From NCBI RefSeq assembly GCF_000686665.1, contig NZ_JMLH01000023.1, positions 1 through 41,825 of the forward strand: DNA of 41,825 nucleotides, read 5' to 3'. The notes under the pieces are model-generated. The model ran no database searches. It saw only the letters and a program-made list of their open reading frames with translations, and was not told the origin of the DNA. This DNA comes from Thomasclavelia saccharogumia DSM 17460. Its GTDB lineage: Bacteria; Bacillota_I; Bacilli_A; Erysipelotrichales; Coprobacillaceae. Below are positions 7,753 to 29,259 of the stretch, in pieces. The position numbers and the translations under genes are program-made. Position 1 is the stretch's first letter. Every line of letters starts with the position of its first letter.

Positions 7753-7993
7753 ACGTTTCCTCCTTCCATTAAAACAGCAGGCAGCTACCTGCTTATATTT
7801 TATCATGGTAGATATGTTTTTTTGTCTCAACTTTGTTCCATGTTTGTCTTACAATTATCTTATTTTGAAAGTGTTTAGAAATTTCAAGAACTTGGTTTTA
7901 AAATTTGGATTATTTTTAATCTTAAAAGATAAAAAGATGGAGTTTAAAAAAAATAAGAATAATGATAAACTTAAGATAAGAAGGGGTGATTGT

Positions 7994-8728
7994 ATGCCTA
8001 AAAATATTTATGTCCTTTCAGATCTGCATGGTCACTATGACATATTTATTAAAATGTTGAAAAAAATAAAATTTTGTCAAGATGATATATTGTATATTTT
8101 AGGTGATTGTTGTGACCGGGGACCTGACAGTTTAAAAATATATTTATATATTCAAAAATTTAAAAATATGCATTTGATTAAAGGAAATCATGAAATTATG
8201 ATGCGTGATGCTTTTAAAGTTGATGATCCTGCTTCTTCGCAAAGAAGAATGTGGTTTCAAAATGGTGGTAATAAAACTTGTACAAGTTATCATCAATACT
8301 TACATAAAAAGGCTTTTGATGAATATGATTATAAAGTTTTAAAAGCGGCTTTTTATAAAATGATGATTGAATATATAGATAGTTGTCCGTCTTTTATTGA
8401 GATTAATTGTAATGATCAGGATTATGTTTTGATTCATGCAGGAATTAATCCTGAAAAAGGTTTATATGAACAAACAGAAGAAGAATGTGCCTGGATGCGA
8501 GAATATTTTTTTATGTCCAAAGGACTGGATGATAAGATTATTATTTTTGGTCATACGCCAACATGCTATATCCGGCAAAATAGTGATTGTTTTGATGTTT
8601 GGTATGATCCAGTTTTTAAAGATAAGATTGGGATCGATGGTGGTTTAGGACCGTTTGAAAATGGACAGTTAAATTGTATATGTTTAAATACGATGGAAGT
8701 TTTTGTGATTAAAAAAAGTGAGCTGTAA
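7994..8728 (+). CDS. Calcineurin-like phosphatase (PrpE/ApaH type), copy 1
   Basis: 244 residues. The metallophosphoesterase signature is complete: SDLHGHYD (D10, H12), GDCCDRGPDS (D38, D41-R42-G43), GNHE (64-67), then LIHAGI and FGHTPT with the later metal-binding histidines, and GIDGG. These residues bind two metals and hydrolyse phosphomonoesters or nucleoside polyphosphates, as in bacterial PPP-family phosphatases and ApaH-like proteins. The substrate is unknown. The ATG at 7994 follows AGGGGTGAT; the N-terminus begins directly with the metal motif, as expected. It is followed 13 bases later by an RpiR-type regulator gene. A paralogous pair with the same order lies at 18919-20484. Probably cytoplasmic, with no signal peptide. 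Confidence 0.88.
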   Translation: MPKNIYVLSDLHGHYDIFIKMLKKIKFCQDDILYILGDCCDRGPDSLKIYLYIQKFKNMHLIKGNHEIMMRDAFKVDDPASSQRRMWFQNGGNKTCTSYHQYLHKKAFDEYDYKVLKAAFYKMMIEYIDSCPSFIEINCNDQDYVLIHAGINPEKGLYEQTEEECAWMREYFFMSKGLDDKIIIFGHTPTCYIRQNSDCFDVWYDPVFKDKIGIDGGLGPFENGQLNCICLNTMEVFVIKKSEL

Positions 8729-8741
8729 TGGGAGGAAGATT

Positions 8742-9494
8742 ATGAATTTATTATTGAGTAGAATATTAACATATTTAAATGGAGCATTGATATATGATCA
8801 GCATTATCGTTTTTGTAAATTCGTTATTTATAATTATTTAGAATTAGAAGATATGACTTTTAGTGAAGTGATTGAAAAAAGCGGCATTAGTGAAGCAGAT
8901 GTTTTAAGTTTTTGTGATTTACTAGGGTTTAATAATTATGAGGAGTTTAAATCGCGTTTGATTAGAGATCATATGATTCGTTTGGATCAAATTAGGGCGC
9001 GAATGTTAGGTGTAAGTAGTGAAAAATTAATTGCAGGAATGGAAAAATCATGTTCAAATGAAACTATGAAAGAATATATTTCAATTATTTGTGAAGCAAT
9101 TTTTAAAGCAAAAAGAGTTATTTTGATTGGAGCTTTATATCCAATGTCGATTGCAGTTGAATTTCAAACTGATTTAGTTAGTTTTGGTAAACCAGTAATT
9201 CAATATCATAGTTTTGATCAAAATATTAAATTTGATCAAGAAGATGTAATAATTTTTATCTCGGCTACTGGACGGGCGATGAATTCTTTTATGCAAATTC
9301 AAAAAGAAGAAGATGTTGATTTAGCAACATCGATTCTTATAACTCAAAATAAGAATTATGCTTTTGGAAAACATAAAATTGCAGATTATGTAATCCAGGT
9401 TCCAGGTAAGTTTGATGGAATTGATTTTAATTATCAGATCATGACGATTTGTGATCTGCTTAGAGTCCACTATTATCAACAATATTATTTATAA
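8742..9494 (+). CDS. RpiR/MurR-family regulator with SIS domain, copy 1
   Basis: 250 residues. Residues 1-75 form the RpiR-type winged HTH (TFSEVIEKSGISEADVLSFCDLLGF, then YEEFKSRL). Residues 110-240 form a SIS sugar-phosphate binding domain (KRVILIGALYPMSIAVEFQ, then DVIIFISATGRAMN). Such proteins sense phosphosugars and control sugar-catabolic genes. The usual serine-rich SIS loop is changed (GALYPMS). The start at 8742 follows GGAGGA. It is co-transcribed with the phosphatase gene upstream, and a terminator follows. Compared with the copy at 19666 the architecture is the same but the sequence is well diverged, so these are old paralogues rather than a recent duplication. Confidence 0.87.
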   Translation: MNLLLSRILTYLNGALIYDQHYRFCKFVIYNYLELEDMTFSEVIEKSGISEADVLSFCDLLGFNNYEEFKSRLIRDHMIRLDQIRARMLGVSSEKLIAGMEKSCSNETMKEYISIICEAIFKAKRVILIGALYPMSIAVEFQTDLVSFGKPVIQYHSFDQNIKFDQEDVIIFISATGRAMNSFMQIQKEEDVDLATSILITQNKNYAFGKHKIADYVIQVPGKFDGIDFNYQIMTICDLLRVHYYQQYYL

Positions 9495-9498
9495 TGTT

Positions 9499-9533
9499 AA
9501 AAAGGTTTTTACTGATCTTAGTAAAAACCTTTT
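9499..9533. terminator. Bidirectional terminator between the RpiR and HAD genes
   Basis: AAAAAGGTTTTTACT (9499-9513) pairs with AGTAAAAACCTTTT (9520-9533) around a short loop. It serves the plus-strand RpiR gene and slightly overlaps the end of the minus-strand HAD gene. Confidence 0.85.
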
Positions 9534-10347
9534 ATCGAATCAAATAGTTTTCAATTACTTCTTTACAGCCATCATGATCATTATCATTTACAATAACATC
9601 ACAAATTTCTTTAATATTATCATTGGCATTTTGCATTGCAACTGCTAAGCCTGCTGCTTTTAAAACATCATAATCATTATTAGCATCACCTACAGCAATA
9701 GTTTCATCTAATTTAAGATCTAAATAATTACATAATTTAATTAATCCACTTGCTTTAGTAACATTTAAAGGTGAGATTTCTAAAGATGTTGTTTCAGCTA
9801 ATGCAAATGTAAGTGGCAGATCTTTTAATAATTGATAACTTTTTTTGCGTGCTTCTTCGTTTGGGTGATAAAGATTGATTTTTTCAATCATTTTATCTTT
9901 AGAAAAGCTATAAATATCGTCGACAGTTGTAGTAACTCGTTGAAACATTGGCTGATATATTTCCATCTGATATTTTGCCATTTCATTAAGATTCTTTTTA
10001 GAAACAATAGAAGAACCATTATTAAAAAGATGAACCATTATATCACTTTGATTAGCTATCGCCATTATTTTATCAACTATATTAAATGGTATATATTCCT
10101 GGTGAATTATTTTTCTATTTTTTAAATCATAGACTAAAGCGCCACTTTCTAAAACCCCATATTGGATATCACAAATTTCATTTTCATAATCTTTTAATTC
10201 AGCTAAACCTCTTCCTGTTGATAAAACAACATACTTATTTAAGGCTGTTGCTTTTTTTATTGCTGTGATAGTTTGTTTTGAAATCTTTTTTTGACTATTT
10301 AGTAATGTGCCATCCATATCCAAAGCAATCAATTCATAATTAGACAT
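9532..10347 (-). CDS. Cof-type HAD-superfamily phosphatase
   Basis: 271 residues, typical of the Cof/YidA group (about 270). Motif I is DMDGTLLNS near the N-terminus, with the nucleophile aspartate in DxDGT. Motif IV is GDANNDYDVLKAAGLAVAM near residue 220. The middle third is the C2 cap. These cytoplasmic enzymes dephosphorylate sugar phosphates, flavin or pyridoxal phosphates; the substrate cannot be read from sequence. A GGGGAA ribosome binding site lies before the ATG. It is divergent from aroE, and a TATAAT-like -10 is visible in the shared intergenic region. Confidence 0.9.
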   Translation of the reverse strand: MSNYELIALDMDGTLLNSQKKISKQTITAIKKATALNKYVVLSTGRGLAELKDYENEICDIQYGVLESGALVYDLKNRKIIHQEYIPFNIVDKIMAIANQSDIMVHLFNNGSSIVSKKNLNEMAKYQMEIYQPMFQRVTTTVDDIYSFSKDKMIEKINLYHPNEEARKKSYQLLKDLPLTFALAETTSLEISPLNVTKASGLIKLCNYLDLKLDETIAVGDANNDYDVLKAAGLAVAMQNANDNIKEICDVIVNDNDHDGCKEVIENYLIR

Positions 10348-11929: not shown

Positions 11930-12438
11930 TGAATCATATTGTTTTAGTACATCCCGCAATTCCTCAAAATACGGGAAATATCATGCGAACTTGTGTTGCT
12001 ACAAACACTAGTCTTCATATCATTAAACCAATGAGCTTTGATTTAGATGATAAAAAAATGAAACGGGCTGGTTTGGATTATGTTAAAGATCTAGATCTAC
12101 ATGTTTATGACAGTTATGAAGAGTTTGAACAAAATAACCCTGGTGAATATCATTTTTTTACCCGTTATTCAAATATATGTTTCACTGATCAGGACTTTAG
12201 TGATAACAGCAAAGAGCACTACTTATTTTTTGGTCATGAACATGATGGAATCCCTAAGGAAATCTTGACTAAGCATTTAGAGCGTTGTTTAAGAATCCCA
12301 ATGAGTGATAAAGTTAGAAGTTTGAATTTATCAAATTGTGCGGCTATTTGTATATATGAAGTTTTAAGACAGCAAAATTATCCCGATCTTTCTAAAGTAG
12401 AGGTTCAAAAGGGAGAAGACTTTTTATATGAGTTATAG
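11929..12438 (+). CDS. trmL: tRNA (cytidine/uridine-34 2'-O)-methyltransferase
   Basis: 169 residues, full length for the TrmL (YibK/CspR) branch of SPOUT methyltransferases, which methylate the wobble ribose of certain leucine tRNAs. The knotted-fold motifs are visible: IPQNTGNIMRTC near the N-terminus, YLFFGHEHDGIP in the middle, and IPMSDKVRSLNLSNCAAICIYE near the C-terminus, where SAM binds. It starts on the last A of the previous stop (TAATG). Confidence 0.94.
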   Translation: MNHIVLVHPAIPQNTGNIMRTCVATNTSLHIIKPMSFDLDDKKMKRAGLDYVKDLDLHVYDSYEEFEQNNPGEYHFFTRYSNICFTDQDFSDNSKEHYLFFGHEHDGIPKEILTKHLERCLRIPMSDKVRSLNLSNCAAICIYEVLRQQNYPDLSKVEVQKGEDFLYEL

Positions 12439-13078
12439 TAAAAAAGATATTTTTTTATCAATCATGTTAATGCTTTTTATTATTACATTAGCAATAGTCT
12501 TTACAGTCTTTTTTAAACAGTTATATTATTTTGATATTGATTATTTGCATATTGATACTCTCAGTGGTATGAGTGAAAAGGTGATCAAAGAAAATTATGA
12601 TATTTTGATCAATTACCAGTCTATTTTTTATCAGGGGGCTTTAAGCTTACCTGATTTTACGATGTCAGCTAGTGGAAAAATTCATTTTCAAGAAGTTAAA
12701 GTTATTTTTGAAGTGATTCAAATTACAATGATTATCAGTGGCTCAATAGCTATTTTGATGATGATTAGGCGTTTAAAGGAAAAAGAGTATCGCTTTTTTA
12801 AATTGACAGGGATGTTGACGATCATCATTCCGGCGATGTTAGGATTTGTGGTAGCATTAGATTTTGATCGTGCTTTTGTCATATTTCATAAAATAGTATT
12901 TAGAAATGATTTTTGGATATTTGATTATCGAAGCGATCCGGTAATTAAGATTTTACCCGAAACGTTTTTTATGCACTGTTTTATCTTGATCGTTGTAATT
13001 GTTATTATGCTGGCACTATTTTGTTTACTTTTTTATAAGTATAAACAAAAGCAAATAATAAACGATACTAATCTATAG
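12428..13078 (+). CDS. TIGR01906-type integral membrane protein
   Basis: 216 residues, four hydrophobic helices (about 8-30, 98-116, 128-146, 180-205) with an extracytoplasmic segment between the first two. The pattern YxIDYLHIDTLSGMS then ENYDILINYQSIFYQG, and the HFQEVKVIF motif before the second helix, fit the TIGR01906/DUF1461 family of Firmicutes. Its function is not known. It overlaps trmL by 11 bases and shares that operon. Its 3' end overlaps the convergent Mrr-like gene by 11 bases. Confidence 0.8.
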   Translation: MSYSKKDIFLSIMLMLFIITLAIVFTVFFKQLYYFDIDYLHIDTLSGMSEKVIKENYDILINYQSIFYQGALSLPDFTMSASGKIHFQEVKVIFEVIQITMIISGSIAILMMIRRLKEKEYRFFKLTGMLTIIIPAMLGFVVALDFDRAFVIFHKIVFRNDFWIFDYRSDPVIKILPETFFMHCFILIVVIVIMLALFCLLFYKYKQKQIINDTNL

Positions 13079-13084
13079 TATCGT
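13062..13084 (-). terminator. Hairpin at the convergent ends of the TIGR01906 and Mrr-like genes
   Basis: ACGATACTA (13062-13070) pairs with TAGTATCGT (13076-13084) with a five-base loop. On the minus strand a U-rich stretch follows, so it best fits termination of the Mrr-like gene. Confidence 0.6.
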
Positions 13085-13766
13085 GGTAATCATGGATGAG
13101 ATATTTAGGCTTTGTTTTTAACGAAGCCTTTGTTTTATCTTTGATAATTTTAATGATAATGCTAATAAAGAAAAATAAACTAATTAGTAAAGGAATCAAA
13201 AAAGATTCTTTTTTTATTGTTCCATAAAACAATAAAAGGGTTATCAATAATGAAATAAGAGGATAATAGAATGGTAATGATTTAGTTAGTAATTTAGATT
13301 TTTTCAAAAAATAACATAACGTTTCATGATCCCATAGCTCTACTTCATTATTTTTAGCGAGATTTATGGCTGCTTTAGAAAATGTGTTATTAGTAAAAAC
13401 TACGGGAATATCACAATTATAATATGTACAGCCGCTTATAGCTTCCTGGATAGCCTTGATTCCAACAGGTTTATTATAACGTTTGCATTGAATTGCATAA
13501 GTATAATTATTTTTTGTAGCAATGACATCAATACCATAATCATTGCTGCTTTTTGATATTGATACATTTTTAAAACTATTTTTTTCTAATAGTAGTTTAG
13601 TAAAAGATTCGAATTGGTAGCCATCAAGATTATTGATATATTCAAGATCAAAATTATTAAAATAAATATTTTTAATAATGTGATAAATAACTTTAATGAT
13701 GGCATTTATTATTTTAAAAGGCAGGATGATGATGTTATTGATCAACCAGACAAATATTAATTTCAT
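13068..13766 (-). CDS. Membrane-flanked Mrr-type (PD-(D/E)XK) nuclease-like protein
   Basis: 232 residues. The centre (about 45-160) is an Mrr_cat-like restriction endonuclease domain: QFESF with a conserved glutamate (E53), SNDYGIDVIAT (D80) and AIQCKRY (Q93-x-K95), then a PVVFTNNTFSKAA strand-helix. These residues form the PD-(D/E)XK metal site, here in the D-QxK form used by Mrr enzymes that cut modified DNA. Unusually, hydrophobic helices lie at both ends (about 2-30 and two between 168 and 210), so the nuclease should sit at the membrane. The start has GGAGG seven bases upstream. Role: defence against foreign or modified DNA is plausible but is inferred. Confidence 0.8.
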   Translation of the reverse strand: MKLIFVWLINNIIILPFKIINAIIKVIYHIIKNIYFNNFDLEYINNLDGYQFESFTKLLLEKNSFKNVSISKSSNDYGIDVIATKNNYTYAIQCKRYNKPVGIKAIQEAISGCTYYNCDIPVVFTNNTFSKAAINLAKNNEVELWDHETLCYFLKKSKLLTKSLPFYYPLISLLITLLLFYGTIKKESFLIPLLISLFFFISIIIKIIKDKTKASLKTKPKYLIHDYHDTID

Positions 13767-18918: not shown

Positions 18919-19662
18919 ATGAGACGTGTTTATGTCATAAGTGATCTACATGGTTATTATGATTTGTTTATTAAATTATTAGAAAAAATCTCATTTAGTG
19001 AATTTGATTTATTATATATAATTGGTGATGTATGTGATCGAGGACCAGATAGTTTAAAGATCTTATTTTATATTCAAGAACATGATAATATAATTTTAAT
19101 TAAAGGAAATCATGAATATATGATGCAAGAGGCATTGTATTATGGGGTTTATTATGATGATATTGATTATCCTTCAAAAGCCTTTAAATTGTGGATTGCT
19201 AATGGCGGAAATACAACGATGGAGAATATTCGCGAGTATCTTCAAAAAGATAAATTAAAACATGAGGATTATCGGGTGGTTAGAAGTGCATTTTTAAAGA
19301 ATTTATATGAATATTTAAACAATTTACCAGAATATTTAGAAATAGAAGTTAATAATCAAAGTTATGTTTTAGTCCATGCAGGAATTGACGTAAAACGTCC
19401 TTTAGATAAGCAGGATCTAGATACTTTGCTTTGGATCAGGGAAGGATTTTATTTACAACGTGGTGATTTGACTAAAATTTATATTTTTGGACATACACCA
19501 ACGGCATTATTAAATAAGGATTATAGTTTTAATATCTGGCTTGATGAAGTTCATCATAATAAGATTGGAATTGATGGTGGTTTAGCTTGTGGAACAGTTG
19601 GACAATTAAATTGTTTATGTTTGAATGATGGTCAAATTACAGTGATTCATAAGGGAGGATAA
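18919..19662 (+). CDS. Calcineurin-like phosphatase (PrpE/ApaH type), copy 2
   Basis: 247 residues, collinear with the protein at 7994-8728. Shared motifs: SDLHGYYD, IGDVCDRGPDSLKI, LIKGNHE, YVLVHAGID, IFGHTPT and KIGIDGG, followed by GQLNCLCLN at the end in both. All residues for a di-metal phosphoesterase site are present. The substrate is unknown. The start ATG 18919 lies behind GGTGGTGA. The downstream RpiR-type gene starts three bases after its stop, so the two should be translated together. The cassette lies between argF and the secreted fucosidase, which makes a sugar-related role possible but unproven. Confidence 0.88.
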   Translation: MRRVYVISDLHGYYDLFIKLLEKISFSEFDLLYIIGDVCDRGPDSLKILFYIQEHDNIILIKGNHEYMMQEALYYGVYYDDIDYPSKAFKLWIANGGNTTMENIREYLQKDKLKHEDYRVVRSAFLKNLYEYLNNLPEYLEIEVNNQSYVLVHAGIDVKRPLDKQDLDTLLWIREGFYLQRGDLTKIYIFGHTPTALLNKDYSFNIWLDEVHHNKIGIDGGLACGTVGQLNCLCLNDGQITVIHKGG

Positions 19663-19665
19663 GTG

Positions 19666-20484
19666 ATGCGAAGTGCTTTTTATAATTTAGTTAATTTTAT
19701 TAATACAGCTAATATTAATGACGTTTATGCAAATGCCGCAAGGATGATCTTACGGAATATTTATTTGATTCCTCAAAGTACGATAACTGATGTTGCTGAT
19801 TTTTGTTTTGTTTCAACAGCGACGATTTCTAGATTATGTCGAAAACTTAACTATGAATCTTTTGCTGATTTTAAATTGGATATTACAATGAATCTTAATT
19901 ATTTTAATCGTGATGCTCTAAGACTGCAGTTTGATCATCAATTACCGCAGCGGAAATATTTACATAAAGGTAAAGAAGTATTTAAAGCACACTTTGAAAA
20001 TATCATTGATAATTTACGAGCAACTTACGATAATATCGATTATGAAGATCTAGAGTTTATTGTTGATAAGATCCATAGTGCTAATAAAATTTGTTTCGCA
20101 GGCAATTTTTTTACGCAGTCTGTTTCCATGCAGCTACAGATCGAACTTTCTTATTTAGGAAAAGAATGTAGCGGGATGTATCCTTTATCGCAGCAGCTTT
20201 TAGTAATTGAACAGTTAACGAAAAATGATGTGATTATTGTATCGAGTATTGCTGGTGGTTTTATGATCGATCATCCTGATGTGATGCGTGCGATTTCTAA
20301 ATCTCCAGCTTATAAAATTGTAATAACGCAATTAGATGAGTTTGTATATAGTAATTCAGTAGATATGATTTTACAAGTAGGAACAGATCACCAGTCTTTG
20401 ATTGGTAAGTTTTCTATTACGTATATTTTTGAGGTATTGGAAGCACTGTATCATCTTAAATATGGGACTAAGGATCTTAAGTAG
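19666..20484 (+). CDS. RpiR/MurR-family regulator with SIS domain, copy 2
   Basis: 272 residues. The N-terminal HTH (about 30-75) reads STITDVADFCFVSTATISRL then LNYESFADFKLD, closer to the family consensus than copy 1. The SIS domain (about 125-255) reads ANKICFAGNFFTQSVSMQLQ, then DVIIVSSIAGGFM. This should be a DNA-binding sensor of a phosphosugar or related ligand. It is co-transcribed with the phosphatase and followed by a terminator. It ends about 300 bases before the fucosidase gene on the same strand, so it may regulate that gene. A start two codons earlier (GTG at 19663) is possible. Confidence 0.9.
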   Translation: MRSAFYNLVNFINTANINDVYANAARMILRNIYLIPQSTITDVADFCFVSTATISRLCRKLNYESFADFKLDITMNLNYFNRDALRLQFDHQLPQRKYLHKGKEVFKAHFENIIDNLRATYDNIDYEDLEFIVDKIHSANKICFAGNFFTQSVSMQLQIELSYLGKECSGMYPLSQQLLVIEQLTKNDVIIVSSIAGGFMIDHPDVMRAISKSPAYKIVITQLDEFVYSNSVDMILQVGTDHQSLIGKFSITYIFEVLEALYHLKYGTKDLK

Positions 20485-20498
20485 AATATAGATAAATT

Positions 20499-20540
20499 AA
20501 ATGATGAAACTATTATGTGAATTAGTTATCATCATTTTTT
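20499..20540 (+). terminator. Terminator of phosphatase-RpiR cassette 2
   Basis: AAATGATGAAACTA (20499-20512) pairs with TAGTTATCATCATTT (20523-20537) with one bulge, followed by T's. Confidence 0.8.
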
Positions 20541-20789: not shown

Positions 20790-23700
20790 ATGATGAAGTT
20801 AAGTAAAATAGCGTTATCACTAACGATGATCATGACTCTGGTACCGGGAATAAACCATATAAATGCAGCTGAAAGTTATATTAGTGATAGTGATTTATCA
20901 ACTATGCAGGTGGCAGCTCCAGAACCTTGGGGAGTTACTCCGACAAATGAGCAGTATCGTTATCAAAAAGAAGAATTAGCAGGTTTTGTTCACTTTGGAC
21001 CTAATACTTTCAATGAAATTGAATGGGGAGAAAATTATGGGAATAAAACCCCAGACGAAATATTTAAATTAGAAAATGATTTTGATGCCGAGACATTGGT
21101 AAAAGCATTTAAAGATGCTGGATTTAAGAAGATCATTGTAACTGCTAAACATCATGACGGTTTTTGTATTTGGAATAGTCAATATACAGATTATGATGTT
21201 GCAAATACAAGCTATAAAAATGGTAACGGTGATATCTTGGCAGAAATTTCAGCAGTTTGTACAAAATATGATATTGATATGGGATTGTATTTATCACCAT
21301 GGGATATTCATGATTCTAGTTATGGTTATTATGATGAAAATGGTAATGCGACAACTGAAGAAAATGATGTGTTAGATTATAATGACTATTATGTAAATCA
21401 GTTAAATGAAATTTTAGGAAATGATAAATATGGTAATAATGGTCATTTTACAGAAATTTGGATGGATGGCGCTAAAGGAAGTGGTGCCAATGCCCAAAAA
21501 TATGATTTTAAACGTTGGTATGAGACGATTCAAACACAAGAAGGATTAGAAGCTGGCTTTGATAGTGAATGCATGATTTTCCAATGTGGTGCTAATACGA
21601 CAGTTCGCTGGATTGGAAATGAAAATGGTTTTGCTTCAAAAAATACCTGGTCAAAATCAAATGTTGATATCGAAGCTGATACATGTGATGATAATGTCCA
21701 GGGAAGTTATTCATTGGGATATGAAAATGGCAATAAATGGACAGTACCTGAAGCTGATGCGCGGATTACATCAGGATGGTTCTGGGGGACAAGAAAGAAT
21801 ACCCCTAAAAGTCTTGCCGATTTAGGAAATATGTATTTTAATTCAGTTGGTCATAATGCACCATTGTTATTAAATGTACCACCAAACTCAGATGGAACAG
21901 TTGATCAGGCAATATTAGATAGATTAGCTGAATTTGGGAAAAATATTGAAGAAACATTTAATAATAATTTAGCAGCTTCAACAAATGCCTCAGTAAAAGC
22001 CTCAAGTGTGCGTGGTGACGACATTACCTATGGTCCAGGAAATGTCATTGATGGAAATGATGAAACATATTGGACGGTTGATGATGGGATACAAGAAGGT
22101 ACTCTGTTAATAGATTTAGGTTCAACAAAATCATTTGATGTTGTTTCTATCGAAGAAGCCATTCAGTTTGGTCAAAGTATCAATGAATATAAAGTTGAAT
22201 ATCGTAATGGCGAAAATAGCGAATGGAAAGTCATGGATGAAGGGGAAACGATCGGAGCTAAAAGATTAGTCCGGACAGCAACTGTAAGAGCTGATCAGAT
22301 TCGAATTACAGTCGATACAAACAAAAGCGATGCGGTGCCGATCATCAGTGAAGTAGGTGTATATAAAGCTAGCGAAGGATTTGAGCTAGCGGGTATGGCT
22401 CCTGAAGGAATGGATGTTATTGATATTGAGGATACTGATATTTCAGATGGAATGGGTTATACATTTAATGGTACATGGTATAAAGAAAATATTACAACTT
22501 GTATTAATGGGACAAACCGTTATGCTAATGCGGGGGCATCCTTAACCCTTACATTTACAGGCAGCAAAGTTTATCTGATGGGTACAAAGGATCCAAATCA
22601 TGGTACTGCTACTATTACAATAGATGGTGGTGAAGCAGAAAAAATAGATACAAATGCTAGTTCACGGGCAACTGGACAAATAATTTATGCTTCAAAAGAT
22701 TTAGAAGATGGCGAACATACTTTAACATTAAGTGTAGATTCAAAAGCGATTGGAATCGAAGCTGCATATGTTATTAACAATGGTGGCAAAGGTATGATTG
22801 GATTAGAAGAATCTAGTTATACAATGAATGAAAATGAGAGAATCAATGTTAAAATAGTTCGGGTTGGTGGCAACAAAGGGACAATAACTGCAAAATTACA
22901 ACCTAATCCAGGAAGTGCGATTCAAGATGATTTTAATACTGAACTGATTACTAATATCGTAATGGAAGATGGTGTTAATGAAACTTATGCTCCTGTAGAA
23001 ACAAGAAGAAATACTAATGCAACAGGTGATCGAGTATTTAGTGTCGAATTAACAGAACCAAGTAGTGGTTTGATTTTAGGATTTAATGATAAAGCAAATA
23101 TTACTATTAAAGATACTGAAACGAGTTCTTTAGAAACATTGAATATGCTTCTTGAATCAGGAAAACAAAAGATTGAAGACTGGTATATATCAGGTTGGGT
23201 ACAGTTTAAAGCTGCATTGATATATGCACAAGAAATTGCTGAAAAATCAGATGCTGCTATTTCTGAAATTGAAAAAGCAATTGAGGATCTAAGAATTGCT
23301 GAAAATGGATTAGTTAAAAGAGAAAAATATACTCAAGAAGATCCTTTTGTTTTCCCTTGGCAAAAAGAGACATCAGCAGTACTTGAAGCTGAATTTGCAA
23401 GTGAGATCATCAATGATCCAAGCAATGATAATGGCTGGCCTTGTGTCGTTACTGAAGGTTCATGGGCAAGTAATGGAAAATTTATTGATGCTATCAATCA
23501 TGGTGATGTCGTTAAATATAATTATAATGCGATAAAAGCTGGAATATATCATGTAAAAGCATATTATCGAAGTGGATCAACGACAAATGCTTTAGCATGG
23601 TCAGAAGAAAGCGGAAAAATAGAAAGTGGCAGTGTGTCAGCTGGAGCTAGCAGTACAGCAGCAACGCATATTGCAGAATTTGACTTAAATGTAAAAGAAG

Positions 23701-25625
23701 CTGGTAATGGGGTATTAGTATTTACAGGACCAGCGGGCAGATCACCACAGCTTGATAAATTAGTTTTTACGCCTGGTGATATTGAATTGAGTACATATAA
23801 TATTGAAGCAATTGCCAGTGCTGGTGGTACAATTAGTGACGAAGGTATAACTGAGGTTACTGAAGGTGATAGTAAAACATATAATATTATTGCTGATGAA
23901 GGATATGAAATCAAAGATGTTCTTGTAGATGGCAAATCTGTCGGTATAGTTGATTCTTATACTTTTGAAAATATTGGTGCAAACGCTAAAATTGAAGTAA
24001 TATTTGTATTTAGTAAATATACAGAGAATAATCCATTTGTTTTCCCTGAAGGAAACGATACGATAGTTCTTGAAGCTGAATATGCAAGCGAGATCATCAA
24101 CGATCCAAGCAATGATAATGGCTGGCCTTGTGTCGTTACTGAAGGTTCATGGGCAAGTAATGGAAAATTTATTGATGCTATCAATCATGGTGATGTCGTT
24201 AAATATAATTATAATGCGATAAAAGCTGGAATATATCATGTAAAAGCATATTATCGAAGTGGATCAACGACAAATGCTTTAGCATGGTCAGAAGAAAGCG
24301 GAAAAATAGAAAGTGGCAGTGTGTCAGCTGGAGCTAGCAGTACAGCAGCAACACATATTGCAGAATTTGACTTAAATGTAAAAGAAGCTGGTAAGGGAAT
24401 ATTAGTGTTTACAGGACCAGCAGGCAGATCACCACAGCTTGATAAATTTGAAATCGTATATGTCGAAATTTTAGATAAAGCAGGATTGAATGAGGCAATC
24501 ATTGTTGCTGAAAATTTAAACGAAGCTGATTATACGACAGAAAGCTGGACTGTAATGCAAAATGCTTTAACAAATGCAAAAATTGTTGTAGCTAAAGAAG
24601 ATGTGACTCAAGAAGAAATTGATATTGCAGCAGCAAATTTAAATGCAGCTATAGAAGCTTTAGTTGAAAAAGTAATTGAAACAGATAAATTAGCTTTACA
24701 AATTGCTATTGAAATGGCTGAAGATGTAAATTTAGAATATGTCTTACCAGTTGTAGTAACAGAATTTAATGAGGCTTTAGAAAATGCTAAAGAAGTATAT
24801 GATAATACTAAAGCTACACAAGTTGAAGTAAATAACGCTTTCGATCGACTAGCGAATGCTATGCATATGTTAGAATTCTTTAAAGGTGATAAAACAGCAT
24901 TACAAAAACAAGTAGATATGATCAATGGTTTAGAAGCAGATAAATACATTGAATCTAGATGGAATGCAATGTTATCAGCGTTAGATAAAGCAAATGATGT
25001 ACTAGGTAACGAGAATGCAATGCAGGAAGAAATAGATGAAGCGTATATAGAATTGGTAAAAGCTTTCTTAGACTTAAGATTAAAACCAAATAAGGATTTA
25101 CTAAGTGCTTTGATCAATAAAGTAAATGGATTAAATGAGGCAAATTATACAGTAGCATCATGGGAAGTAATGAATGAAGCATTAAATGATGCAATAGTAG
25201 TATTAGAAGATCCAGATGCGACACAAATAGAAGTAGATGCAGCATATGAGGCATTGATAAGAGCATACTTAAACTTAAGATTGATTCCAAATAAGGACCT
25301 ATTACAAGGGTTGATCAATAAAGCAAACAGCTTAAATGCAGCAAGTTATAGTGCTGAATCATGGAATGTATTACAAGAAACATTAAACAATGTACAGGCA
25401 GTGTTAAATAATTCTGAAGCAAGTCAAGAGCAGGTTGATAATGCTAAAGATACTTTAACTAAGGCAATGGCCGGATTAGAAGTAATTGAAGCAGGTAATC
25501 CAGTCAAAGTTGGAGATTCAACAGTAAGTATTAAAACAGGTGATGATACTTTAACTGGAGTATTTGCGGGATTAGGATTAATAAGTATGGTTACGGTTTT
25601 AGTAAGCAAACGAAAAGAAGATTAA
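20790..25625 (+). CDS. Secreted multidomain alpha-L-fucosidase (GH29) with CBMs, FIVAR stalk and TGD-type anchor
   Basis: 1611 residues. A signal peptide (1 to about 27, ending INAAES) is followed by a GH29 domain (about 40-390) with HFGPNTF, AKHHDGFCIW and EIWMDGAKG; D226 is the likely nucleophile. Then come an F5/8-type C (CBM32-like) domain (391-530), a beta-sandwich module (about 540-665), a Calx-beta-like domain (about 668-775), a helical FIVAR-like segment, two almost identical CBM6/35-like modules (865-991 and 1094-1220) around a bacterial beta-repeat, five FIVAR repeats (1229-1575), and a tail SIKTGDD plus hydrophobic helix plus KRKED. It should release fucose from host or dietary glycans at the cell surface. 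A perfect cre site upstream suggests CcpA control. ATG 20793 is an equally good start, with AAAGGA upstream. Confidence 0.93.
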   Translation: MMKLSKIALSLTMIMTLVPGINHINAAESYISDSDLSTMQVAAPEPWGVTPTNEQYRYQKEELAGFVHFGPNTFNEIEWGENYGNKTPDEIFKLENDFDAETLVKAFKDAGFKKIIVTAKHHDGFCIWNSQYTDYDVANTSYKNGNGDILAEISAVCTKYDIDMGLYLSPWDIHDSSYGYYDENGNATTEENDVLDYNDYYVNQLNEILGNDKYGNNGHFTEIWMDGAKGSGANAQKYDFKRWYETIQTQEGLEAGFDSECMIFQCGANTTVRWIGNENGFASKNTWSKSNVDIEADTCDDNVQGSYSLGYENGNKWTVPEADARITSGWFWGTRKNTPKSLADLGNMYFNSVGHNAPLLLNVPPNSDGTVDQAILDRLAEFGKNIEETFNNNLAASTNASVKASSVRGDDITYGPGNVIDGNDETYWTVDDGIQEGTLLIDLGSTKSFDVVSIEEAIQFGQSINEYKVEYRNGENSEWKVMDEGETIGAKRLVRTATVRADQIRITVDTNKSDAVPIISEVGVYKASEGFELAGMAPEGMDVIDIEDTDISDGMGYTFNGTWYKENITTCINGTNRYANAGASLTLTFTGSKVYLMGTKDPNHGTATITIDGGEAEKIDTNASSRATGQIIYASKDLEDGEHTLTLSVDSKAIGIEAAYVINNGGKGMIGLEESSYTMNENERINVKIVRVGGNKGTITAKLQPNPGSAIQDDFNTELITNIVMEDGVNETYAPVETRRNTNATGDRVFSVELTEPSSGLILGFNDKANITIKDTETSSLETLNMLLESGKQKIEDWYISGWVQFKAALIYAQEIAEKSDAAISEIEKAIEDLRIAENGLVKREKYTQEDPFVFPWQKETSAVLEAEFASEIINDPSNDNGWPCVVTEGSWASNGKFIDAINHGDVVKYNYNAIKAGIYHVKAYYRSGSTTNALAWSEESGKIESGSVSAGASSTAATHIAEFDLNVKEAGNGVLVFTGPAGRSPQLDKLVFTPGDIELSTYNIEAIASAGGTISDEGITEVTEGDSKTYNIIADEGYEIKDVLVDGKSVGIVDSYTFENIGANAKIEVIFVFSKYTENNPFVFPEGNDTIVLEAEYASEIINDPSNDNGWPCVVTEGSWASNGKFIDAINHGDVVKYNYNAIKAGIYHVKAYYRSGSTTNALAWSEESGKIESGSVSAGASSTAATHIAEFDLNVKEAGKGILVFTGPAGRSPQLDKFEIVYVEILDKAGLNEAIIVAENLNEADYTTESWTVMQNALTNAKIVVAKEDVTQEEIDIAAANLNAAIEALVEKVIETDKLALQIAIEMAEDVNLEYVLPVVVTEFNEALENAKEVYDNTKATQVEVNNAFDRLANAMHMLEFFKGDKTALQKQVDMINGLEADKYIESRWNAMLSALDKANDVLGNENAMQEEIDEAYIELVKAFLDLRLKPNKDLLSALINKVNGLNEANYTVASWEVMNEALNDAIVVLEDPDATQIEVDAAYEALIRAYLNLRLIPNKDLLQGLINKANSLNAASYSAESWNVLQETLNNVQAVLNNSEASQEQVDNAKDTLTKAMAGLEVIEAGNPVKVGDSTVSIKTGDDTLTGVFAGLGLISMVTVLVSKRKED
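23382..23761 (+). repeat. 380-bp repeat, copy A (CBM module)
   Basis: Matches 24069-24448 nearly base for base, offset 687. It encodes EAEFASEIINDPSNDNGWPC onward to RSPQLDKL. The few differences cluster at the two ends. Confidence 0.92.
24069..24448 (+). repeat. 380-bp repeat, copy B (CBM module)
   Basis: Second copy of the 23382-23761 segment. Similar but more diverged protein sequence (FVFP block) flanks both copies, so the underlying domain duplication is larger than the near-identical core. Confidence 0.92.
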
Positions 25626-26863: not shown

Positions 26864-27388
26864 TTATAGTATAAATGATGGTAATAGAACAGGATAGAAC
26901 TCATGAAGTGAAAGATAACCAATCATGCCAAAACTAACGAGAAATATTGCTGAAGGTAATTTACTACGTTTTTTGTGAGTAATTAAATGGTATATGACTA
27001 AACCGATAATACCACCTAAAGTGTTTAGAAAAATATCATCAACATCAAAAACTCCCCATCCTGTTGCTAATTGAATTAATTCAAATGATAGACTAGTTAT
27101 AAAGTTTGTAAAAATAACATTACTGTAAGTAAGGGATTTAAAATAATTTAATAAAATAATACTTAGAGGAATAAATAATGCAATATTTCCTAAAATATTA
27201 ATCAATAAAGTTTGGCTTAATCCATGATCATAATACTGGTTAATAAAATCAAATAATATAAAATTTATTTTATAACCTTGATTAGTAAAACCATTTTTAA
27301 GTAAAATGATCTTAATTAACATCCAAAAATAAATCAGAGAACAAAACCCCAGGACAAAATTGGATAGATGTGGTTTTTTTAATGCCAT
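26864..27388 (-). CDS. VanZ-like family membrane protein
   Basis: 174 residues, four to five hydrophobic helices. The NILGNIALFIPLSIIL helix and the GVFDVDDIFLNTLGGIIG motif are characteristic of VanZ-like proteins. VanZ in enterococci gives low-level teicoplanin resistance; most family members have no known role. The start at 27388 follows GGAGGTAATATTT; five more in-frame codons upstream overlap that ribosome binding site. It is the first gene of a unit with the 33-residue peptide and the C39 peptidase, downstream of a two-component system. Confidence 0.85.
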   Translation of the reverse strand: MALKKPHLSNFVLGFCSLIYFWMLIKIILLKNGFTNQGYKINFILFDFINQYYDHGLSQTLLINILGNIALFIPLSIILLNYFKSLTYSNVIFTNFITSLSFELIQLATGWGVFDVDDIFLNTLGGIIGLVIYHLITHKKRSKLPSAIFLVSFGMIGYLSLHEFYPVLLPSFIL

Positions 27389-27409
27389 AAATATTACCTC
27401 CAATCTAAA

Positions 27410-27450
27410 AACCTATTCTATATTGTTATCATAACAAGATAAAATAGGTT
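27410..27450 (-). terminator. Long hairpin between the histidine kinase and vanZ-like genes
   Basis: AACCTATT and AATAGGTT form the outer arms, and TTGTTAT (27423-27429) with ATAACAA (27431-27437) a perfect inner palindrome. On the minus strand TTTTT follows, so it can terminate the two-component transcript. The inner palindrome might also be an operator. Confidence 0.65.
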
Positions 27451-27474
27451 ATGTATTGACATTTACTAAAGAAA

Positions 27475-27494
27475 TTCTTACAAATTTCTTACAA
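27475..27494 (+). promoter_or_regulatory. Predicted response-regulator box (9-2-9 direct repeat), kinase end / vanZ side
   Basis: TTCTTACAA occurs at 27475-27483 and 27486-27494, an 11-base period typical of OmpR-family regulators binding as head-to-tail dimers. A near-identical pair lies upstream of the response regulator gene (29320-29339). This one overlaps the kinase stop, about 90 bases upstream of the vanZ-like start. Confidence 0.6.
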
Positions 27495-28574
27495 TGGTAA
27501 TTTAACTGTAAAGATAATTAATTTATTATTTAAATCAGCACGAATTGTCCCGTGATGAAGTTCGATGATCTTTTTAGTTATCGCTAGCCCTAATCCAGAA
27601 CCACCGGTCTTACTACTTCGTGATTCGTCTAAACGGACAAAGGGTTCAAAAATATGATTTAATTTATTCTTATCAACAAAATTAACAGAATTTGATAATT
27701 TTATGATAATATGATCATTTTCTTTTTTAGCACTAATATTAATTTTTGAATCTTTATCGCTATAATTGATGGCGTTACGAATAAGATTATCAAAAACACG
27801 TTCAAATTGGTTTATATCGATCGATACAATTAAGTTATCTTCGATCTCGTTAACACATTCAAGATTTTTTTCTCGATATAAAGGCATGAATTCATATGAT
27901 ATTTGCGCTAGCATGATTGATAAATTTACTTGCTGTTTATCTAACGTGATATCGCTTAAATTATATTTAGCGATCAAAAAGAATTCTTCGATCAGTTCTT
28001 CTAAACGAAGCGATTTATCATAAGCAATTTTTGTATAATTGCTTTTTTCTTCTAAAGATAAATTAGTTTGGCTTTTTAATAAATCTAAATAGCCAATAAT
28101 TGATGTTAAAGGTGTTTTTAAATCGTGAGCTAAATACAACAATAAATCATTTCTTTGCTTTTCAGCCTGTTTAATAGCAGCTCTGTTTTTTAATGAATCT
28201 TTTTTGATTTGATTCATTTGATCCTCTATTTCTTTAAGTTCAAAAGGAAGACTGATTAATCGCTCGCTATCTTCTACAAGTATTTTTCCCGCTTCTAACA
28301 TCTTTTCGATATACTGTAAGGATTCTCGGTATCGAAGCCAAAAAATAATGATAGTATCAAGAGCAATAAGACTGATCGATATAGCTGGTAAGTTATCTTT
28401 GATCAATTGAGCCAACTGATAAACCAGATCATATTCTTGCCAAACATATTGATGATAGACTTCATAAGAATAAACAAATAGGATAATAAAAGTAATGATC
28501 GATATCCCAATTGTAACAGCTATTTTTTTTAAAAGATTAGCCGTTAAACTTTTTTTGAAATGAGAATTATTCAA
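27489..28574 (-). CDS. Sensor histidine kinase (VanS-like)
   Basis: About 361 residues from a TTG start. Two TM helices (about 18-38 and 61-80) flank a short outer loop of about 25 residues, so it is a small-loop sensor. Then come a coiled HAMP-like linker, the DHp H-box LAHDLKTPLTSIIGYL with H150 as phospho-acceptor, and the ATPase N-box (NLIRNAINYS), G1 region and GGSGLGLAITKKI. The TTG at 28574 overlaps the response-regulator stop (ATTGAATAA). An ATG at 28625 in the same frame would need a 59-base overlap and adds 17 residues with no family character. The pair is co-transcribed. Confidence 0.88.
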   Translation of the reverse strand: MNNSHFKKSLTANLLKKIAVTIGISIITFIILFVYSYEVYHQYVWQEYDLVYQLAQLIKDNLPAISISLIALDTIIIFWLRYRESLQYIEKMLEAGKILVEDSERLISLPFELKEIEDQMNQIKKDSLKNRAAIKQAEKQRNDLLLYLAHDLKTPLTSIIGYLDLLKSQTNLSLEEKSNYTKIAYDKSLRLEELIEEFFLIAKYNLSDITLDKQQVNLSIMLAQISYEFMPLYREKNLECVNEIEDNLIVSIDINQFERVFDNLIRNAINYSDKDSKINISAKKENDHIIIKLSNSVNFVDKNKLNHIFEPFVRLDESRSSKTGGSGLGLAITKKIIELHHGTIRADLNNKLIIFTVKLPL

Positions 28575-29259
28575 TTGTATAACCCACTCCCCAAACAGTT
28601 TTGATAAATTTAGGTTTACGAGCATTTTCGTGCATTTTTTCTCGCAATCTAGCTACATGGGCCATGACGGTATTATTGTTGTCGAGATATTTTTCCTGCC
28701 AAACAGCTTCAAATAATTCTTCTGATGTTACCACACTGCCTTTTTTACTACATAAATACCATAAAATTGAGAATTCTAAAGGAGTAAGATTTAAAGGCTG
28801 ATCGTATAAAGTACATTTATGATTGTCATTATTGATCATTAGACCATTGAAATCGTATATTTGCTGGTTAGGTGTTGTTTCACTAGTATTATAACGAAGA
28901 TAGCGTCTTAATTGGGTTTTGACATGCGCAGCTAACTCTAAAGGATTAAAGGGTTTAGTTATATAGTCATCAGCTCCCAATGTTAAACCATTGATCTTAT
29001 CAAGATCATTATTTTTTGCTGTCAACATGATCACGGGGAAAAAATAATCTTTACGAATTTCTTTTAATAAACTAAAACCATCAAGATCTGGCATCATCAC
29101 ATCTAAAATGGCAAGATCATAGTGATTTTTTTGTAAACTGTCCAAAGCATCCTGCCCGTGATAGTATTTAAAAACATGATAATTTTCGTTTTGTAAATAT
29201 AATTCAACTAAATCAGCAATTGATTGTTCATCATCAACTACTAAGATATTGTAAGCCAT
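28567..29259 (-). CDS. OmpR-family response regulator (VanR-like)
   Basis: 230 residues. The receiver domain has VVDDE, ILDVMMPDLDG with phospho-acceptor D53, MLTAK and KPFNPLEL. The C-terminal winged helix has LTPLEFSILWYL and TVMAHVARLREK, ending VWGVGYTIE. This should be phosphorylated by the overlapping kinase and bind direct-repeat DNA. The repeats TTCTTACAA at 29320-29339, upstream of its promoter, suggest autoregulation. VanR-like in overall character, but no vanH, vanA or vanX ligase genes are present, so glycopeptide resistance is not implied. Confidence 0.93.
   Translation of the reverse strand: MAYNILVVDDEQSIADLVELYLQNENYHVFKYYHGQDALDSLQKNHYDLAILDVMMPDLDGFSLLKEIRKDYFFPVIMLTAKNNDLDKINGLTLGADDYITKPFNPLELAAHVKTQLRRYLRYNTSETTPNQQIYDFNGLMINNDNHKCTLYDQPLNLTPLEFSILWYLCSKKGSVVTSEELFEAVWQEKYLDNNNTVMAHVARLREKMHENARKPKFIKTVWGVGYTIE

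What the first reader, a model, noticed from the sequence alone, without database searches (positions are those of the whole stretch)
7994..9494. A repeated phosphatase + RpiR/SIS regulator cassette, copy 1
A calcineurin-type phosphatase gene followed directly by an RpiR-type sensor gene occurs twice in 12 kb (here and at 18919-20484), with the same order, orientation and close spacing, but well-diverged sequences. Two old paralogous pairs that stay coupled suggest a working unit: the phosphatase may make or destroy the phosphorylated ligand sensed by the SIS domain. I know of no described system with this layout.
Basis: partly seen in the sequence, partly recalled or inferred. Interest (0 to 1): 0.7.

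Follow-up and report, generated by a model that had tools for sequence, protein, structure and literature searches.

The report
Phosphatase–RpiR operons, sugar-transport linked
A phosphatase gene followed by a sugar-sensing regulator gene is a real two-gene unit kept across a family of gut bacteria, built twice from different regulators and often sitting beside a third gene related to sugar-uptake (PTS) proteins, which points to an undescribed phosphate-based sugar-signalling module whose mechanism is not yet tested.

Summary
Confirmed: two two-gene operons, phosphatase (PP) then RpiR-type regulator, at 7994-9494 and 18919-20484. The PPs are 47% identical, the regulators only 19%. The unit is not peculiar to this genome: 39 of 43 genomes of the family hold this PP. 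Of 53 non-redundant PP loci with usable flanks, 44 have an RpiR gene adjacent, in several unrelated gene contexts. Two corrections. (1) The cassettes are not one duplicated pair. The PPs are sister clades, but the regulators come from two RpiR subfamilies (joint clade rejected, AU p = 0.0003), so pairing arose twice or one partner was swapped. (2) The pair is part of a larger neighbourhood. A protein with an unknown N-terminal domain, a PTS EIIB domain and sometimes a ROK domain lies next to 26 of the 53 PPs, and stays there where the regulator is lost; it is missing beside both cassettes here. The copy-2 regulator has a 98%-conserved recognition helix; the copy-1 regulator has lost the usual contact arginine. 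Both SIS phosphate sites are altered, so a canonical phosphosugar ligand is uncertain. Best reading: a PTS-linked module in which the phosphatase resets a phosphorylated signal that the RpiR protein reads. Substrate, ligand and regulon are untested.

The parts
7941..7971 (+). Candidate operator or promoter element: inverted repeat AGTTTA-N19-TAAACT, 22 nt before PP copy 1
   Evidence: Only match in the window, 0.07 expected. Present before type-I PP in 5 of 6 Thomasclavelia-type loci; shuffles reach at most 2. It overlaps the likely promoter; function not shown.
7994..8728 (+). Phosphatase copy 1 (PP clade I), calcineurin-type metallophosphoesterase
   Evidence: PF00149 60 bits; catalytic motifs SDLHG, GDxCDRG, GNHE, HAG, GHTP intact; clade I support 1.0.
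8742..9494 (+). Regulator copy 1 (R1 subfamily): RpiR fold with degenerate HTH and modified SIS site
   Evidence: HTH_6 26.2, SIS 24.8; structure model; recognition helix 32% versus SIS 58% mean identity among orthologs.
9500..9533 (.). Hairpin, likely bidirectional terminator between cassette 1 and the convergent Cof-type gene
   Evidence: -15.9 kcal/mol, z -5.9.
18919..19662 (+). Phosphatase copy 2 (PP clade II)
   Evidence: PF00149 64 bits; 47% identical to copy 1; clade II support 1.0.
19666..20484 (+). Regulator copy 2 (R2 subfamily): RpiR-type with intact, highly conserved recognition helix
   Evidence: HTH_6 35.3 bits; recognition helix 98% identical across genera; every assessable ortholog is paired with PP.
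20499..20540 (+). Hairpin followed by a T run, likely terminator of cassette 2
   Evidence: -13.5 kcal/mol, z -3.1.

Best explanation
Each cassette is a two-gene operon encoding a calcineurin-type phosphatase and an RpiR-type regulator. The operons belong to a PTS-linked signalling module that in many relatives also has an EIIB-like protein beside it. Proposed working: the EIIB-like domain carries PTS phosphate on its Cys, or otherwise reports sugar flux; the phosphatase removes phosphate from this protein or from a phosphorylated product of the pathway and so resets the signal; the RpiR protein senses the resulting state through its modified SIS domain and controls its own operon and probably a few other genes. 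In this genome both cassettes have lost the adjacent EIIB gene and would have to use a distant one (one full-length copy, on another contig) or run without it. SHOWN: operon-like structure, conservation, intact catalytic motifs, repeated association of the three families, the Cys of the EIIB domain. INFERRED: enzyme substrate, ligand, direction of control, regulon.
For: Of 53 PP loci with both flanks, 44 have RpiR adjacent, 26 have the EIIB-like gene within 3 kb, 52 have one or the other, 18 both. Spacing PP to regulator is -75 to +57 nt in the co-directional pairs, often a 4-nt overlap. Gene surroundings differ between lineages while the pair stays. PP clade I always pairs with R1 and clade II with R2, although R1 and R2 are separate subfamilies, so the association was made more than once. 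PP-linked EIIB-like proteins also come from two separate parts of their family tree. The EIIB domain matches chitobiose/cellobiose IIB, E 9e-18, and keeps the CxxGxxT/S Cys in 20 of 22. PP catalytic residues are invariant. Precedent: the Mlc-EIIB complex (3bp8 among the fold matches of the EIIB-ROK protein), where a ROK repressor reads PTS state (own knowledge of that system).
Against: No substrate, ligand or regulon data. The EIIB-like gene is absent beside both cassettes in this genome and beside 27 of 53 PP loci. Nine genomes keep PP without R2, so the regulator is not needed for PP function. In Sharpea and Eggerthia the EIIB Cys is Ser. R1 lacks the arginine that contacts DNA in NanR and its recognition helix is poorly conserved, so DNA binding by copy 1 is doubtful. 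The EIIB-like family is large in these genomes (up to about 25 hits), so some adjacency is expected by chance, though nowhere near half of loci.
Confidence: 0.4

Rival explanations
1. Ligand-maker model: the phosphatase dephosphorylates a small sugar phosphate or related metabolite that is the SIS ligand, a two-gene metabolite sensor with its own reset enzyme.
For: SIS domains of the RpiR family bind phosphosugars (NanR, HexR/RccR). Subfamily-specific SIS loops are nearly invariant (GALYPxSIAVE and SATGR in R1; GNFFTQS and SSIAGG in R2), so a ligand is likely. R2 never occurs without PP in assessable genomes.
Against: Against NanR Ser135/Ser179/Ser181/Thr184, R1 has Pro/Ser/Thr/mixed and R2 has Thr/Ser/Ala/Phe or Tyr. 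The nearest characterised relatives of PP act on proteins or dinucleoside polyphosphates, not sugars.
Confidence: 0.22
2. Dinucleotide or alarmone model: PP is an ApaH/PrpE-like hydrolase of Ap4A-type signals and the RpiR protein only tunes its expression.
For: The best PDB hits of PP include ApaH, and ApaH and PrpE profiles match weakly. In type-II loci PP follows hflX, near groESL and perR/rubrerythrin genes, a stress-like setting.
Against: Scores are far below the ApaH and PrpE cutoffs (46 versus 223 bits; 25 versus 340). The neighbourhood differs in type-I loci. It does not explain the EIIB-like partner.
Confidence: 0.17
3. Simple autoregulated enzyme operon: the RpiR protein is a local repressor of the phosphatase gene; no shared signal and no wider regulon.
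For: Two-gene operons with own terminators. The only candidate operator is at the operon's own promoter. PP persists without R2 in nine genomes.
Against: Repeated recruitment of sugar-sensing regulators and of EIIB-like proteins suggests a shared signal. R1's recognition helix is degenerate although it stays paired.
Confidence: 0.17
4. Chance adjacency or inherited synteny without function, in genomes rich in RpiR genes.
For: These genomes carry 10 to 56 HTH_6 matches. Loci within a family share ancestry.
Against: Pairing in different contexts, two regulator subfamilies, tight overlap, retention in other families and in records labelled Lachnospiraceae/Clostridiaceae with 46-56% GC.
Confidence: 0.04

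Closest known systems
RpiR/MurR family one-component regulators (NanR, RccR/HexR, MurR)
   Same: HTH plus SIS architecture; fold of R1 matches MurR (Z 15.7) and, by Foldseek, NanR and RccR; R2 HTH passes the Pfam cutoff
   Different: Phosphate-site residues altered in both; R1 HTH degenerate without the contact Arg; coupled to a metallophosphatase gene instead of a sugar catabolic gene
Bacterial PPP/ApaH-like metallophosphatases (PrpA/PrpB, ApaH, PrpE, lambda PP)
   Same: PF00149 fold and all catalytic motifs
   Different: Far below every equivalog cutoff in NCBIfam; own clade; substrate unknown; linked to RpiR and EIIB-like genes
Mlc-EIIB(Glc) PTS signalling in E. coli
   Same: ROK-type protein and EIIB domain used to report PTS phosphorylation state
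   Different: Here EIIB is fused to an unknown N-terminal domain and sometimes to a ROK-like domain without HTH; the transcription factor is RpiR-type; a phosphatase is added
PTS lactose/chitobiose-type EIIB
   Same: EIIB domain (E 9e-18) with the Cys loop
   Different: Not a stand-alone transporter subunit; carries an unknown conserved FYLHF domain

Membership tests
RpiR family (R2, copy 2) | N-terminal HTH_6 above Pfam cutoff | tested here: met
   35.3 versus 28.3 bits
RpiR family (R2, copy 2) | C-terminal SIS domain | tested here: inconclusive
   No Pfam SIS hit, but alignment with NanR/RccR chains extends into the SIS domain; no structure model made for R2
RpiR family (R1, copy 1) | N-terminal HTH_6 above Pfam cutoff | tested here: not met
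   26.2 versus 28.3 bits; fold present in model but helix poorly conserved
RpiR family (R1, copy 1) | C-terminal SIS fold | tested here: met
   MurR Z 15.7, rmsd 2.5, 139 residues aligned; Pfam 24.8 versus 25
Phosphosugar-binding SIS | Ser135, Ser179, Ser181 and Thr184 phosphate ligands (NanR numbering) | tested here: not met
   R1 P/S/T/mixed; R2 T/S/A/F-Y
Calcineurin-type metallophosphatase | PF00149 and catalytic D-H, D, N-H, H, H motifs | tested here: met
   60 and 64 bits; invariant motifs
ApaH, PrpE, PrpA/PrpB equivalogs | NCBIfam equivalog cutoff | tested here: not met
   46 versus 223, 25 versus 340, 67 versus 326 bits
PTS EIIB (third gene, in relatives) | PF02302 and phosphorylatable Cys | tested here: met
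   Up to 33.6 bits against cutoff 23.6, some members just below and one without a hit; Cys in 20 of 22
PTS EIIB (third gene, in relatives) | Actual phosphorylation by the PTS | not testable with these tools
   needs biochemistry

The most novel reading that the evidence does not exclude
A new type of PTS-linked signalling system: an EIIB-like sensor protein, a dedicated PPP-type phosphatase that resets it, and an RpiR/SIS regulator that reads the outcome, assembled repeatedly from interchangeable regulator subfamilies.
Probability: 0.25. Interest if true: 0.75.

Novelty: new variant of a known kind. Interest (0 to 1): 0.55.

Why it matters
PTS signalling is mostly known to end with phosphate moving to the sugar or with phosphorylated regulators; dedicated phosphatases coupled to RpiR regulators are not described in the papers searched. 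If right, a widespread group of gut bacteria (Thomasclavelia, Faecalibacillus, Massilimicrobiota and relatives) would carry an extra reset step in sugar sensing. The recurrent pairing of one phosphatase family with two regulator subfamilies gives a natural experiment for finding the shared signal.

Tried and rejected
Duplicated-pair origin of the two cassettes: rejected by AU test for R1+R2 as one clade (p 0.00026); the group was defined after an earlier tree, and long branches are present. R1 paired genes as a single clade is not rejected (p 0.415), so one origin of the type-I pair remains possible. A shared dyad operator for type II: none found; the block TTTAGTTTA near the promoter is shared by 7 of 16 loci, which one of 200 shuffles also reached. 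Viral origin: 22 distant relatives in viral contigs, none with an RpiR neighbour. Distant PP relatives (under 170 bits) in Clostridia, Enterococcus, Collinsella: no RpiR neighbour seen by a family-derived HMM, which may miss very divergent RpiR genes. Third PP in the genome (L003, 369 aa, 29% identical): no RpiR within the 3.7 kb read. The fold of the FYLHF N-terminal domain was not identified: the search list was filled by ROK and EIIB matches.

Full report
OBSERVATION. The window holds two same-strand pairs. Copy 1: phosphatase ATG 7994 to 8728 and regulator ATG 8742 to 9494. Copy 2: phosphatase 18919 to 19662 and regulator ATG 19666 to 20484. Each pair is closed by a hairpin: 9500-9533 (-15.9 kcal/mol, z -5.9) and 20499-20540 (-13.5, z -3.1). 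The phosphatases are PF00149 proteins with all catalytic motifs and are 47% identical. The regulators are only 19% identical. Copy 2 passes the HTH_6 cutoff; copy 1 falls just below the HTH_6 and SIS cutoffs, but its model (pLDDT 89) is an RpiR fold, MurR Z 15.7, with NanR and RccR as the top Foldseek hits.

HOW WIDESPREAD. 39 of 43 genomes of the family, and 3 other genomes of the order, carry this phosphatase at E below 1e-60. In an even sample of 392 genomes from the phylum, no genome outside the order reached that level; the best matches there were about 150 bits. Named relatives include Thomasclavelia cocleata, Faecalibacillus, Massilimicrobiota, Stoquefichus, Longibaculum, Beduini, Sharpea, Kandleria and Eggerthia, and records labelled Holdemanella, Solobacterium, Hungatella and Clostridiaceae. 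The labels of the last group are the depositors' and were not checked. Of 59 non-redundant phosphatases, 53 have at least 1.5 kb on both sides; 44 of these have an RpiR gene adjacent. Surroundings change between lineages while the pair stays. Nine genomes keep the phosphatase without the regulator, while every assessable R2 ortholog (at least 57% identical) sits behind a phosphatase. R2 therefore depends on PP, but not the reverse.

TWO PAIRINGS, NOT ONE DUPLICATED PAIR. The phosphatases fall into sister clades I and II, both with support 1.0. Clade I pairs only with R1-type and clade II only with R2-type regulators. R1-type genes are also common without a phosphatase, beside a TrpX-like ABC operon or beside methylglyoxal synthase, Cof-type phosphatase and nucleoside phosphorylase genes. 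In a tree with 40 other RpiR proteins, R1 and R2 each group with different unpaired relatives. Forcing them together is rejected, p 0.00026. The phosphatase has thus been coupled to RpiR proteins at least twice, or one partner was replaced in place.

THIRD PARTNER. A protein with an unknown N-terminal domain (invariant FYLH), a chitobiose/cellobiose-type EIIB domain (E 9e-18 to PDB 1h9c) and, in some, a ROK-like domain lies within 3 kb of 26 of 53 phosphatases. In type-II loci it is usually divergent, 46-153 bp from the phosphatase, in three Massilimicrobiota loci about 600 bp away. In type-I loci it is downstream of the regulator, upstream co-directional, or divergent. It stays next to the phosphatase in Sharpea, Kandleria and Eggerthia, where the regulator is gone. 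Its EIIB Cys is kept in 20 of 22. The phosphatase-linked proteins come from two parts of the family tree. In this genome it is absent beside both cassettes; congeners G002, G004 and G005 keep it beside copy 2. One full-length member lies on another contig.

REGULATOR DETAILS. In pneumococcal NanR the ligand phosphate is held by Ser135, Ser179, Ser181 and Thr184, and a triple mutant of the last three loses binding (PMC12713135). R1 has Pro, Ser, Thr and a mixed residue there; R2 has Thr, Ser, Ala and Phe or Tyr (the Ser135 match is read from the HMM alignments, the other three by aligning the SxSGxT loop). Both sets are nearly invariant within their subfamily, so a pocket is under selection but may not hold a canonical phosphosugar. 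The R2 recognition helix is 98% identical across genera, net charge +3. The R1 helix is 32% identical, lacks the NanR Arg56 equivalent and is on average negative. A DNA inverted repeat AGTTTA-N19-TAAACT at 7941-7971 precedes copy 1 and recurs in 5 of 6 type-I Thomasclavelia loci, with longer arms in some. It overlaps the probable promoter.

MECHANISM. The most likely reading is a PTS-linked module: EIIB-like protein as phosphorylated reporter, phosphatase as reset, RpiR protein as reader. What is shown is the genetics and the motifs; substrate, ligand and direction are inferred. NCBIfam scores rule out filing the phosphatase as ApaH, PrpE or PrpA/B. I found no description of the layout in the open-access library, which lacks most subscription journals.

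Noticed in passing
G000 versus G005, G012, G026 (whole genomes): RpiR genes are strongly expanded and vary widely within one genus: 10 HTH_6 matches in this genome, 56 in a congener. EIIB-like hits vary in parallel (7 versus 25).
   Followed up: partly
L306-L309, L291, L297: The N-terminal-EIIB protein and a separate ROK gene occur as adjacent genes in several genomes, matching the fused NTD-EIIB-ROK form elsewhere: gene fusion or fission.
   Followed up: no
L087, L089, L090, L096, L102, L106, L109, L110: R1-type regulators without PP recur beside Cof-type HAD phosphatases with methylglyoxal synthase or pyrimidine-nucleoside phosphorylase genes; in the window a Cof-type gene (9532-10347, minus strand) is also convergent with cassette 1.
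   Followed up: partly
window 26864-29259, minus strand: VanZ-like gene with a VanS/VanR-like two-component pair (VanR-type model 396 bits, above its cutoff), without van ligase genes in the stretch scanned.
   Followed up: no
window 20790-25625: 1611-aa exported protein that looks fucosidase-like at its N-terminus (from its sequence, no family search run) with repeated modules, directly after cassette 2.
   Followed up: no
window 12428-13766: Lit-type lipoprotein transacylase gene convergent with an Mrr-type restriction endonuclease gene.
   Followed up: no
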